This document shows, in pieces, positions 39,830-56,054 of a stretch of 64,000 bases of DNA. Made by a program: the position numbers and the translations under genes. Within the stretch, counting starts at the first letter, position 1. Each line of letters starts with the position of its first letter. Below the pieces are notes generated by a model. It saw only the letters and a program-made list of their open reading frames with translations. It did no database searches and was not told the DNA's origin. The stretch comes from Legionella birminghamensis (GTDB lineage: Bacteria > Pseudomonadota > Gammaproteobacteria > Legionellales > Legionellaceae), in the NCBI RefSeq assembly GCF_900452515.1, contig NZ_UGNW01000001.1:2666001-2730000 (forward strand), in the 5' to 3' direction.

Positions 39830-40241
39830 CTTCTCTATCGAACTCTATCTATGAGAACAATATAACATATTTGCTTGTAAATGAAGCAGATTAATCCGCA
39901 TTCACCTACCACGCAGGTTTGAATTATGGGCGAACCGCTGGACCCCGCGGCGCAGCCCCGTCCGAATCCCCGCGGCACCGACCGCGGGGCCCATGCCTGT
40001 TGAGTAGCATGGTTTTCAAACAAGTTTCAATGTTGCCAAAACATAGGGTTTAACAGGTAGTCATAAACAAGTCTTCTTAACATTAAATTGGCTTCATGTG
40101 GGCCCCGCGGTCGCTGCCGCGGGGATTCGAGAGCTTTTAATTCTCATGCACTTGCGTAGATAACTATGGGCCAAGCCGCAGGGCGTGGCAACCGAACGCC
40201 GCTTGTCCGCAGAGTCCAGAGAACCAGACAGCAAACTTGCT
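39830..40241. repeat. Repeat region with MITE-like family 1 copy A
   Basis: No gene is seen here. A palindrome half (GACCCCGCGG, 39941) leads into the element at 39964-40185. It starts GAATCCCCGCGGCACCGACC, runs through a unique-looking core of about 100 bp (39996-40097) and reaches the inverted palindrome ending GCCGCGGGGATTCG (40100-40129), then TCTCATGCACTTG and a TAGATAACTATGGG motif. The same arrangement occurs in reverse orientation at 55728-55951, with roughly nine in ten core bases matching by eye. It marks the right edge of the T6SS neighbourhood. Confidence 0.8.
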
Positions 40242-40370
40242 TTATGGCAGGTGATTCTCCGTATCCGAGGTTTTCTGAGCCAGCGGTTCCGTATGGGTTG
40301 TTTCTGTTGCTGTGTATGCAAAAATGGAAAACCAGAACGCAATAATTAACGTCGATACCAAAGTTTTCAT
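40242..40370 (-). CDS. 42-residue secreted or membrane peptide
   Basis: ATG at 40370 is preceded by a strong ribosome site, AGGAAGGAG. The peptide begins MKTLVSTLIIAFWFSIFAYT, a textbook signal peptide or single anchor, and ends with a short polar tail (about 20 residues, Thr/Glu-rich). I do not recognise it. The ribosome site and signal-like start support a real gene; it may be a small envelope peptide. It lies at the edge of the repeat region. Confidence 0.6.
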   Translation of the reverse strand: MKTLVSTLIIAFWFSIFAYTATETTHTEPLAQKTSDTENHLP

Positions 40371-40498
40371 TATCTGCTCCTTCCTGGAAGAGATAAAGCG
40401 ACCAAGTCCAACTTCAGCTAAAGTCTATCTATCCTATAATTAAGAAAACTATATAAACATAGTTGAAGGTTTAGCATTTCACAAGCCAGGAATTTATC

Positions 40499-40660
40499 AT
40501 GGACCATGTCAGTAATTCTCCAGATCAGGAAGACTCAGCGGAAGAGCCAGCTGCAGTTGAATCAGCCAATGAAAAAAAATTGGATACCGAACAGGATGAA
40601 GGCCGGTTGGATCATAAAGAACGGGATCCGAGAACGGGTGATTTTCGCAGTGCAGACTAG
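40499..40660 (+). CDS. 53-residue acidic hydrophilic protein
   Basis: ATG at 40499 has AGGA seven bases upstream. The product is very acidic and lacks hydrophobic residues and cysteine; it begins MDHVSNSPDQEDSAEEPA and ends RDPRTGDFRSAD. It is probably intrinsically disordered. No family recognised. It is divergent from the 42-residue peptide gene and convergent with the glycosylase gene. A longer overlapping frame starting at 40506 codes for an unlikely protein. Confidence 0.55.
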   Translation: MDHVSNSPDQEDSAEEPAAVESANEKKLDTEQDEGRLDHKERDPRTGDFRSAD

Positions 40661-40671
40661 TGGATTATTCT

Positions 40672-41226
40672 TTATTTTTTTGAAACAAAGGGATTATCCT
40701 TGATGTAAAAACGGAGTAATTTTTTTGCCCATTCTTTCGCATAGTCGACACCGATACGGGGTCTTTTTATAATAGATACTGGTGCCCGCCTCGCTTCATC
40801 GTCTAATAGATAAAAACGATCACCGAGCAAATCATGCCCATATAGTTCTTTGGTGATACCCATTGCTTTTGACAGCAGTCCCGGCCCCTGGGTTCGTTGA
40901 TTGATATTTTTCACAGGTTCCAATGCCCGCAATAAAACCCCACAGCCTTTACCCTCTGTCTCGGTAACGATATTAGTGCAATAGTACATCCCATAAATGA
41001 GGTAAACATAAGCATGCCCCGCCGGCCCAAACATAACCTTTGTCCTTGGTGTTAAGCCCTTTGAAGAATGCGCAGCCAAATCATGTTCGCCGATATACGC
41101 CTCCACCTCGACAATGCGGCCTATTTTTTCTACATTATCCTGATGATGAACCAGGTATTTCCCTAGCAAATCCTGAGCTACGGTAATGGTATCCCGGCTG
41201 TAGAAGTCACGCTGAATTTTTTTCAT
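40672..41226 (-). CDS. DNA-3-methyladenine glycosylase, AAG/MPG family
   Basis: About 184 residues, the usual length for bacterial AAG-family enzymes. Signatures: AQDLLGKYLVH, RIVEVEAYIGEHDLAAHSS (with the catalytic Glu in VEAY), GHAYVYLIYGMYYCTNIV and GVLLRALEP, then QGPGLLSKAMGI. It excises alkylated purines to start base-excision repair. I prefer the ATG at 41226; a TTG three codons upstream is in frame. It is divergent from the VOC-family gene with a 78-base gap. Confidence 0.92.
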   Translation of the reverse strand: MKKIQRDFYSRDTITVAQDLLGKYLVHHQDNVEKIGRIVEVEAYIGEHDLAAHSSKGLTPRTKVMFGPAGHAYVYLIYGMYYCTNIVTETEGKGCGVLLRALEPVKNINQRTQGPGLLSKAMGITKELYGHDLLGDRFYLLDDEARRAPVSIIKRPRIGVDYAKEWAKKLLRFYIKDNPFVSKK

Positions 41227-41304
41227 ATAAGACAAACACCAAAAACTTTATTAATATGTTTAACTAGTTCTCCACCAACCCTCAACCACTAACAGGGAGC
41301 AGCC

Positions 41305-41781
41305 ATGAGCAACAGCGTTAATTATATACCAAATGATTACAATCACATCACCCCCTATCTTATTGCCACAAACGCCCGTGAAGCACTGGAGTTTTATAAA
41401 AAAGTGCTGGGTGCAAAAGTGGTGATGTGCATGGAGGGTCCCAACAATAGTATAGGCCATGCAGAGCTTCGTATTGGCGATTCCAAGTTTATGCTTGCAG
41501 ACGAATGTGAAGAAGCACATGCAAAAAGCCCGTTAAGCTATGGCGGCTCGCCTGTAGGTTTGTATGTTTATGTAAAAAACGTCGATGAGGTTGCAAAGCT
41601 TGCTGAAGCGGAAGGCGCAACGATTACCCGTCCTCTGCAAAATCAATTCTATGGTGATCGCACCTGTACGTTTACCGATCCTTTCGGGCATATATGGTCA
41701 ATCGGCACACATATTGAAGATGTATCCGAAGAAGAAACAGCGCGGCGAATGGAAAAAATGATGAAGGAGCATGGTAAGTAG
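41305..41781 (+). CDS. VOC-superfamily (glyoxalase/PhnB-like) protein
   Basis: 158 residues with the two beta-alpha-beta-beta-beta modules of the vicinal-oxygen-chelate fold. ITPYLIATNAREALEFYKKVLGA, HAELRIGDSKFMLADE and DPFGHIWSIGTH are typical of PhnB-like or 3-demethylubiquinone methyltransferase-like VOC proteins. The exact substrate cannot be read from the sequence. AGGGAG precedes the ATG. It is convergent with the P-type ATPase gene. Confidence 0.85.
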   Translation: MSNSVNYIPNDYNHITPYLIATNAREALEFYKKVLGAKVVMCMEGPNNSIGHAELRIGDSKFMLADECEEAHAKSPLSYGGSPVGLYVYVKNVDEVAKLAEAEGATITRPLQNQFYGDRTCTFTDPFGHIWSIGTHIEDVSEEETARRMEKMMKEHGK

Positions 41782-55044: not shown

Positions 55045-55113
55045 CTTTTGATATATAGTCCGTGGCCTGAATCAGAATAATGGCTGCCGTCTTACTGAGT
55101 GGAGAGATTTTAA

Positions 55114-55380
55114 GTGGCAAATATTAAGTCAGCAATTAAACGCGCCCGTCAAAACATTAAACTGCGTCAGCACAATGCCAGTGCACGCTCAATGTACCGT
55201 ACATTTGTTAAGAATGTACTGAAAGCCGTTGAAACAGGTGACCATGAAGCAGCTAAAGCAGCTTATGCAAAAGCGCAACCTGTTATTGACAAAGCTGCTG
55301 GCAAGGGCCTGATTCATAAAAATAAAGCAGCCCGTATTAAAAGCCGCCTGAGCGCCCGCATCAAAGCAATGTCTGCTTAA
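55114..55380 (+). CDS. rpsT: Ribosomal protein bS20
   Basis: 88 residues, Lys/Arg/Ala-rich: ANIKSAIKRARQNIKLRQHN at the start and GLIHKNKAARIKSRLSARI at the end are diagnostic. It binds 16S rRNA early in 30S assembly. The start is GTG with GGAGAG upstream; a weak start codon is also a feature of rpsT in E. coli, where S20 limits its own translation, and similar control is plausible here. A hairpin follows the stop. Confidence 0.97.
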   Translation: MANIKSAIKRARQNIKLRQHNASARSMYRTFVKNVLKAVETGDHEAAKAAYAKAQPVIDKAAGKGLIHKNKAARIKSRLSARIKAMSA

Positions 55381-55389
55381 TTCAGTTTT

Positions 55390-55417
55390 ATTCTCACATC
55401 CCAAGGGGTGTGAGAAT
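55390..55417 (+). terminator. Hairpin downstream of rpsT
   Basis: ATTCTCACATCCC, loop AA, GGGGTGTGAGAAT gives a 13-bp stem with one G-T pair, 9 bases after the rpsT stop. No strong T-run follows, so termination may be partial or Rho-assisted. Confidence 0.65.
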
Positions 55418-55547
55418 CCTGCATTTATACCCTCACCCAATAGTCAAACCAAGCCCTTCGTAGAAATTCGGCACAAAACTACATACACTTAATTTATAAG
55501 TTCCGCTCTTTTTTCGTTATGCTTTAGACTAAATAAGGAGCACTCTC

Positions 55548-55723
55548 ATGGAAGATAAAAAGCAAATCCGCCCAATGGTGAAGCCAGCAGCCTTCCTCAG
55601 TCGAATTATCAGAAAGAAAAACCGGGTGAAAAAAATAAACAGTCACTAATTAATTTTAATGTTAATTTTAATGATCACGATGCTTTGTTTCATATTGCTA
55701 AAAAAAATCATAGGATAGATTGA
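55548..55723 (+). pseudogene. Small gene with apparent frameshift
   Basis: An ATG at 55548 has a strong AAGGAG seven bases upstream. The uninterrupted frame gives only a 33-residue basic peptide that stops at 55649. Reading one frame over from the A-run at 55557-55561 gives a longer, more protein-like continuation to 55723: hydrophilic sequence with PQSNYQKEKPGEKNKQ, then NFNVNFNDHDALFHIAKKN. One extra A in the run would join the two into a 58-residue protein. It may be a decayed gene, a sequencing error or slippage. No family recognised. Confidence 0.45.
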
Positions 55724-56054
55724 ATTAGCCCTGCGGCTTGTCCCATAGCCTATTTACACAAAGTGCATGAGAATTTATAGCTATCGAATCCCCGCGGCTG
55801 CGACCGCGGGACCCATGAAGCCAATTTAATGTTAAGAACACTTGTTTATGGCTACCTGTTAAACCCTATTTTCTGGCAACATTGAAACTTGTCTGAGGAC
55901 CGTACTACTTCAACAGGCATGGGCCCCGCGGTCGCAGCCGCGGGGATTCGGTGGTCTGTGCCGCGGGGATTCGGATGGGGAAAACGTTTGTGTAGATAGC
56001 TACCTGTAGATTAATGCCCACGTATCCGGAGAGAGTAGAAATGCGTAGAATAGC
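55724..56054. repeat. Repeat region with MITE-like family 1 copy B
   Basis: No gene is seen. The element at 55728-55951 is the inverted homologue of the one at 39964-40185: CTGCGGCTTGTCCCATAG, a CACAAAGTGCATGAGAATT stretch, the palindrome at 55784-55816, a ~100-bp core and the palindrome at 55918-55951 ending GCCGCGGGGATTCGG. A further half palindrome (CCGCGGGGATTCGG, 55961-55974) and TGTGTAGATAGCTA (55990) follow, so the region is a mosaic of the same modules. Confidence 0.8.

What the first reader, a model, noticed from the sequence alone, without database searches (positions are those of the whole stretch)
39964..55951. MITE-like family 1: two inverted ~220-bp copies (39964-40185 and 55728-55951) bounded by palindromic ends
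The two copies match over the whole element in opposite orientation, including a ~100-bp core with no coding capacity. Both ends of the core are the same CCGCGG palindrome in inverted orientation, so the terminal inverted repeats are themselves palindromes. A third, degenerate relative sits at 46969-47167. This looks like a non-autonomous mobile repeat; the inverted pair could also recombine and invert the 15.5 kb between.
Basis: seen in the sequence. Interest (0 to 1): 0.7.

Follow-up and report, generated by a model that had tools for sequence, protein, structure and literature searches.

The report
Mobile repeat nesting in DNA hairpins
The two matching ~220-base stretches are copies of a small, gene-less mobile repeat that has spread through a Legionella-family genome, appears to insert into the loops of short DNA hairpins and carries a pair of such hairpins itself; in related bacteria the same hairpin type flanks genes for a small GIY-YIG nuclease.

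Summary
The query hits 42 places of at least 166 bp (86-100% identical) in its own genome; the half-hairpin GAATCCCCGCGGC occurs 765 times (control 1). The full element is: outer inverted repeat CATAGCTATCTACACAA, 31-nt hairpin, ~105-nt core, inverted hairpin, outer repeat. Of 33 bounded elements, 14 show 8-11-bp target duplications (mismatched pairs: 38 of 1056), as do 13 of 21 elements in relative G145; insertion is mainly into hairpin loops. Relative G123 has a full-length IS with these ends and an IS4-like transposase. So this is a MITE that targets hairpins and carries hairpins. Its hairpin type accompanies one clade of GIY-YIG genes (8 of 8 at >=80% identity, 0 of 22 below). Such gene-plus-hairpin modules sit just inside the ends of IS5-type and IS66-type transposons. 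I found neither the cognate nuclease nor an IS with these ends in this genome. Two syntenic relatives lack the element at two of three sites; the third is uninformative. No inversion is fixed. New variant of known kinds; nuclease action is inferred.

The parts
39963..39993 (+). copy 1, left 31-nt hairpin (type A)
   Evidence: sequence; inverted-repeat pair I16; fold of the same type
39994..40098 (+). copy 1, non-coding core (~105 nt)
40099..40129 (-). copy 1, right hairpin, inverted
40152..40168 (-). copy 1, right outer box (TTGCGTAGATAACTATG); left box missing
40169..40185 (.). half of a target hairpin outside copy 1 (GGCCAAGCCGCAGGGCG); no duplication can be shown because the left end is lost
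   Evidence: compare
46939..46955 (+). third member, left outer box (CATACGTATCTATACAA)
46969..47014 (+). third member, two tandem half-hairpins
47015..47045 (+). third member, left hairpin
47046..47135 (.). third member, diverged core
   Evidence: same core family by chained similarity
47136..47166 (-). third member, right hairpin
51589..51846 (.). another member: hairpin at 51647-51677, outer boxes near 51618 and 51803, half-hairpin at 51827-51839
55728..55743 (.). half of a target hairpin outside copy 2 (GCCCTGCGGCTTGTCC)
55744..55760 (+). copy 2, outer box at the low end
55785..55815 (+). copy 2, hairpin
55816..55919 (-). copy 2, core, inverted to copy 1
55920..55950 (-). copy 2, second hairpin
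55951..55973 (-). copy 2, tandem half-hairpin
55988..56004 (-). copy 2, outer box at the high end (GGTAGCTATCTACACAA)
491..797 (.). hairpins pointing apart, with an array of seven 25-nt half-hairpin-like units between them
1411..1606 (.). related box-bounded element (145 bp between boxes) whose flanks are hairpin halves in inverted order
   Evidence: 2667437

Best explanation
The element is a MITE, a non-autonomous derivative of an IS4-like insertion sequence with ends CATAGCTATCTACACAA (inverted). Shown from sequence: dispersed copies; duplications of 8-11 bp of target at a large minority of copies; insertion mainly into the loop of short hairpins, so that the halves of the target hairpin stand outside the element. 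Shown: family-1 copies carry an inverted pair of 31-nt hairpins of the type that accompanies one clade of small GIY-YIG nuclease genes. Inferred: a transposase like that of the full-length IS in relative G123 moved the elements; because each copy carries hairpins, each insertion can add landing sites, which gives nested mosaics. Inferred and weaker: the GIY-YIG nuclease acts on these hairpins, probably as single strands, as an accessory of transposons; in this genome the hairpins are stranded without their cognate nuclease.
For: Copies: 42 long matches, 765 half-hairpins. Target duplications: 14 of 33 bounded elements against 38 of 1056 mismatched pairs in G000; 13 of 21 at 8/9 or better in G145, and two more with an exact 10-bp duplication (the latter read from its printout). 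Hairpin targets: 11 of 14 rejoined sites in G000 and 20 of 21 in G145 have >=7 pairs joining the flanks, controls 27.75% and 26.5% of 400 random intergenic windows each. Autonomous element: 1347-bp IS in G123 with a 422-aa frame, PF01609 41.8 bits over cut-off 23. Exact box in 3 of 140 family genomes. Absence at two sites in G003 and G008. Intergenic: 0 of 18 sampled midpoints in ORFs >=200 aa, which cover 76% of those bases. Hairpin type against GIY-YIG clade: 8 of 8 and 0 of 22.
Against: Neither window copy shows a target duplication, and 19 of 33 elements in G000 do not. Two of the 14 (3555908, 3556161) are tandem neighbours, so their repeat may not be a duplication. A first, ungapped test was weak: mean identity 4.26 against 3.61, permutation p 0.011, 31 elements. 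In G145 mismatched pairs also agree often (96 of 420), because the targets are alike. The hairpin criterion is lax (about 27% of random windows pass). The empty sites are not resolved to the base, because the flanks have diverged. No IS with these ends was found in the own genome: PF01609 gave 6 hits, none shown to have these ends; other transposase families were searched only for PF01797 and PF13546. The G123 transposase is under the cut-off of NCBIfam IS4_3 (98.5 of 160 bits), and its top NCBIfam row is a flagellar FlhF model (108.5 of 951 bits), which I take as spurious. The G123 IS that I read whole has no clean duplication. Nuclease action was not tested.
Confidence: 0.72

Rival explanations
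1. The mobile unit is the hairpin pair itself (hairpin-core-hairpin), moved by a GIY-YIG nuclease acting on single-stranded hairpins; the outer boxes belong to older elements in which the pairs landed (compare Neisseria intergenic mosaic elements with dRS3 ends).
For: Hairpins without a box are common. G003 has a similar outer box with another hairpin. GIY-YIG genes are flanked by such pairs in other bacteria. Tandem half-hairpin arrays suggest local copying.
Against: Target duplications fall at the outer box. The right arm out to the box is kept in many copies. No cognate GIY-YIG gene in the own genome.
Confidence: 0.17
2. A REPIN-type repeat moved by a REP-associated tyrosine transposase (RAYT).
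For: Two inverted palindromes around a short spacer, hundreds of intergenic copies.
Against: No Y1_Tnp match at E<=10 in the own genome, while the control rings in 10 of 14 named genomes. Target duplications; REPINs are not known for these (recalled).
Confidence: 0.04
3. Copies were spread by recombination or as parts of larger duplicated blocks, kept as terminators or structural repeats, without transposition.
For: Intergenic position; some copies are tandem or nested; hairpins could terminate transcription (inference).
Against: Flanks differ between the 30 loci printed, a few repeat neighbourhoods excepted; target duplications; absence at two sites in two relatives.
Confidence: 0.05

Closest known systems
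MITEs of IS4-family insertion sequences (IS50/Tn5-like group)
   Same: Short, no gene, inverted ends, 9-10-bp duplications, full-length relative with a DDE transposase. The end CATAGCTATCTACACAAGT resembles the outer end of IS50 as I recall it.
   Different: Targets hairpin loops and carries an inverted hairpin pair; the partner IS was found in another genus of the family, not in this genome.
IS elements that target REP palindromes (PMC1525189, abstract seen)
   Same: Palindromic intergenic repeats as insertion hot spots.
   Different: Here a MITE does it and itself carries palindromes, so that targets can multiply with it.
CGTC-tagged REPs, including Neisseria dRS3 (PMC3733652, abstract and passages seen)
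   Same: Short hairpin with unpaired tag and tail, high copy number, inverted dimers.
   Different: The tag here is CGAA, not CGTC; [quoted passage not shown]
Ssn, single-stranded-DNA-specific GIY-YIG nucleases with their repeats (recalled; the paper is not held)
   Same: Small GIY-YIG proteins linked to many copies of a cognate genomic repeat.
   Different: Here the own genome lacks the cognate gene, and in relatives the gene-plus-hairpin module lies inside DDE transposons; cleavage untested.
REPINs / BIMEs with RAYTs
   Same: Inverted palindrome pairs, intergenic, high copy number.
   Different: No Y1 transposase in the genome; target duplications.

Membership tests
MITE | short, multicopy, no coding capacity | tested here: met
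   42 long matches; no ORF over 80 aa confined to it; 0 of 18 midpoints in long ORFs
MITE | terminal inverted repeats | tested here: met
   outer boxes; copy 1 has one only
MITE | target-site duplication | tested here: met
   14 of 33 against 38 of 1056; not seen at either window copy
MITE | autonomous partner with the same ends | tested here: met
   1347-bp IS in G123; not found in the own genome
IS4 family (Tn5-like group) | transposase of the partner IS over the family cut-off | tested here: inconclusive
   NCBIfam IS4_3 98.5 bits, cut-off 160; PF01609 over cut-off; no Tn5-specific Pfam domain hit
REPIN/RAYT | Y1 tyrosine transposase in the genome | tested here: not met
   no match at E<=10
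CGTC-tagged REP | CGTC tag at one end | tested here: not met
   type-A hairpin begins CGAATC
CGTC-tagged REP | hairpin with unpaired tag, high copy number | tested here: met
GIY-YIG nuclease with cognate repeats (Ssn-like) | GIY-YIG gene accompanied by the repeat | tested here: met
   in relatives: 8 of 8 genes at >=80% identity, 6 of them enclosed by an inverted pair; not in the own genome
GIY-YIG nuclease with cognate repeats (Ssn-like) | site-specific cleavage of single-stranded repeat DNA | not testable with these tools
   needs an assay
Neisseria intergenic mosaic elements (NIME) | repeat units flanked by inverted short palindromes (dRS3) | not tested
   architecture looks alike (recalled; listing only); no Neisseria sequence was compared

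The most novel reading that the evidence does not exclude
A GIY-YIG nuclease gene with its cognate inverted hairpin pair is a recurrent accessory module of unrelated DDE transposons (IS5-type, IS66-type and the type-A elements), placed just inside the transposon ends, much as TnpB/IscB accompany IS200/IS605. The hairpins double as landing pads for hairpin-targeting IS and MITEs, so transposition makes its own targets; in this genome the hairpins have outlived the nuclease and spread inside an IS4-like MITE. This would supply the missing dedicated enzyme of CGTC-type REPs.
Probability: 0.35. Interest if true: 0.8.

Novelty: new variant of a known kind. Interest (0 to 1): 0.58.

Why it matters
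Palindromic repeats of the CGTC type have been described as apparently lacking a dedicated transposase (PMC3733652). Here palindromes of that build are tied by clade, orientation and position to GIY-YIG genes, gene-plus-palindrome pairs sit inside transposons of unrelated families, and a MITE both hits such palindromes and carries them. That gives a testable account of how hundreds of palindromes accumulate in a genome, and a new place to look for transposon accessory nucleases.

Tried and rejected
RAYT/REPIN: no Y1 transposase. DDE_5 transposase as the partner: none in the own genome. Own IS4-like IS (397 aa, five copies, L309-L313): other ends (CTGATATATCCCC), lands in CGCGG stems. Own Tn5-like IS (470 aa, L314): other ends. 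Rfam: nothing over threshold in 36000-60000. Solved structures: none for the G123 transposase; for GIY-YIG one weak hit to a UPF0213 protein, E 0.092. NCBIfam: no family for three GIY-YIG proteins. Literature (all 10 searches used): the Ssn paper that I recall is not held under the DOI I tried and none listed it; no paper held all of GIY-YIG, insertion sequence, transposase and Legionella; I saw none in the listings that describes this link, judged by titles and abstract starts. PMC1564403 was seen in passages only. A first, ungapped duplication test was weak; a second allows 8-11 bp with end shifts; both are reported. The ~11-nt stretch between end and hairpin, alike at both ends of one element but different between elements, first looked like an inserted tag; the 10 G101 copies share it almost unchanged, so I treat it as part of the inverted repeat.
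Full report
What is there. The window lies at 2666001-2730000 of contig C1 of G000, a 3.79-Mb genome of two contigs. The family is Legionellaceae: a contig of family member G141 agrees in length and coordinates with Legionella jamestowniensis, and one of same-genus G004 with Legionella erythra (52 loci listing; the match by coordinates is my inference). The two copies match at 89% over 221 of 222 query positions. The same query hits 42 places over at least 166 bp at 86-100% identity, itself included (a lower bound: 40 of 266 candidates were scored). 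The half-hairpin GAATCCCCGCGGC occurs 765 times with at most one mismatch, the reversed control once. In the window plus 19 evenly spaced 20-kb stretches (444 kb) there were 18 inverted hairpin pairs; 0 of 18 midpoints lie in ORFs of 200 aa or more, which cover 76% of those bases. In all own stretches held there were 101 hairpin pairs: 89 in one core family by chained similarity, 11 in a second, 1 alone. That set is enriched for family 1, because many stretches were fetched with it.

Anatomy. They are not the ends. Further out lies CATAGCTATCTACACAA on the left and its complement on the right. Between left box and hairpin many copies have ATGTTTTCCCCGTCC, often with tandem 23-25-nt copies of the half-hairpin; between right hairpin and box is an arm of other sequence. 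Copy 1 has lost the left box; copy 2 has both in degenerate form.

How it inserts. Outside the boxes of many copies stand the halves of a hairpin. At 2211744 the order is CTACGCCCTGC-GGCTTGTCC, element, GGCTTGTCC-GCAGGGTCCAG: a 9-bp duplication of a hairpin loop. Allowing 8-11 bp, at most one mismatch and a shift of one base, 14 of 33 bounded elements in G000 have a duplication, against 38 of 1056 mismatched left-right pairs; two of the 14 are tandem neighbours and may owe it to that. A cruder first test (10 against 10 bases, no shift, 31 elements) gave mean identity 4.26 against 3.61, permutation p 0.011. Of the 14 rejoined sites 11 have at least 7 pairs joining the flanks, against 27.75% of 400 random intergenic windows.

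Other genomes with the same box. ATAGSTATCTACACAA occurs exactly in 3 of 140 family genomes searched: G000 (65), G145 (108) and G123 (10). In 25 stretches of G145 I found 21 distinct bounded elements of 157-195 bp: 13 have a 9-bp duplication at 8/9 or better (96 of 420 mismatched pairs reach that too, since targets are alike), two more an exact 10-bp one (L340, L346), and 20 of 21 rejoined sites pass the hairpin criterion (control 26.5% of 400 windows). L346 is a type-A hairpin with GGCATCGACC duplicated. In G123 the box bounds a 1347-bp IS with a 422-aa open frame: PF01609 over cut-off; in NCBIfam nothing passes its cut-off, the best transposase model being IS4_3 at 98.5 of 160 bits, below a flagellar FlhF model at 108.5 of 951 that I take as spurious. 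Its flanks often end in a hairpin-loop sequence such as GGCTTGACC or GGTCAAGCC, but the one copy read whole has no clean duplication.

Empty sites. G003 and G008 are collinear with the window at 69-91% identity. At copy 1 about 400 bp of the window face 100 and 110 bp; at the third member 321 bp face 65 and 65 bp. At copy 2 both relatives hold about 3 kb of other sequence. So 2 of 3 sites show absence and the third is uninformative; junctions are not resolved to the base. G003 has its own elements at two places where G000 and G008 have none, with a similar outer box but another hairpin (CTACGTCCCTCGGCTTGTCCGAGGGATCCAG and a variant). Same-strand matches run in order through most of the stretch between the copies (only that strand was searched), so no inversion is fixed.

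Where the hairpins come from. The type-A hairpin with its loop occurs in 16 of 143 family genomes. One search found GIY-YIG relatives in 84 of 140 family genomes and gave 30 loci. All 8 of these at 80% identity or more have type A nearby and none has type B, 6 of the 8 being enclosed by an inverted pair; of the 22 at 73% or less none has type A and 17 have type B. PF01541 GIY-YIG is found in the three proteins tested. In genomes of many phyla, 79 loci were found; 13 lie too near a contig end; of the other 66, 33 have an inverted repeat of score 15 or more around the gene, against 3 of 117 background positions. In 21 of the 33 the printed repeat contains GTCAT on one strand; at least one (L163) is a mere AT-rich match.

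The module sits in transposons. In G101 (21 GIY-YIG matches) 10 of 10 fetched copies have the ends TAGGGCGTGTTGACAATT (small changes in some), then ~11 nt, then a hairpin, on both sides, in ten different surroundings; 6 have one length and 4 are shorter. The one copy whose genes I listed (L108) has an IS5-type transposase frame beside the GIY-YIG gene. In G125 (25 matches) the gene follows an IS66-type transposase; the element ends in GTAACTCCCC plus a CGTC-type hairpin at both sides, and reading the printout I see an 8-bp duplication in the four copies compared (for example GTCTAGAC in L337). The own genome has one GIY-YIG match at E<=1, 48% identical, beside a different tandem repeat; a search with the whole type-A element returned only its hairpin parts.

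Reading. The safest statement is a hairpin-targeting MITE that carries hairpins. That the hairpins are, or were, sites of a GIY-YIG nuclease is supported by co-occurrence and not by experiment. IS elements that target palindromic repeats are known (PMC1525189, abstract), and so are CGTC repeats that apparently lack a transposase (PMC3733652, abstract and passages). A nuclease family of this kind acting on single-stranded repeats is recalled from a paper that is not held. The searches named under Tried and rejected showed me no paper that joins these; that library is partial.

Noticed in passing
L067 1-1785 (G000:C1 near 2156371): The own genome's only GIY-YIG match (48% identical) sits at the end of a tandem array of ~100-nt units (CTTCGCCAAGGCTCGCAATGACGGG...), a different palindromic repeat.
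   Followed up: partly
L309-L313 (G000): An IS4-like IS (397-aa frame, five copies) with other ends; in the copies read it lies in CGCGG stems, with 8-bp duplications ACCGCGGG (L312) and AACGCGGG (L310); in L311 it interrupts a copy of the MITE.
   Followed up: partly
window 516-678; L134 about 11021-11233; L309 about 2261-2497: Tandem arrays of 23-25-nt units made of a half-hairpin plus a ~10-nt spacer; how they grow is unexplained.
   Followed up: no
L047, L048, L049, L050 (relatives): The ~11 nt just outside the hairpin are alike (inverted) at both ends of one type-A element but differ between elements, as if the two ends are homogenised.
   Followed up: partly
L326-L334 (G145): G145 MITEs with the same outer box carry, inside both ends, another palindrome-like repeat (ACGTCATCCAGAGCGCAGCGAAGG...), so 'box plus inverted repeat pair' recurs with a different inner repeat.
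   Followed up: no
L306 and L314: A Tn5-like IS (470 aa) lies in hairpins of the CTACG...CTTGTCC kind in G000 and in G003; in G003 it is about 200 bp from a GIY-YIG gene.
   Followed up: partly
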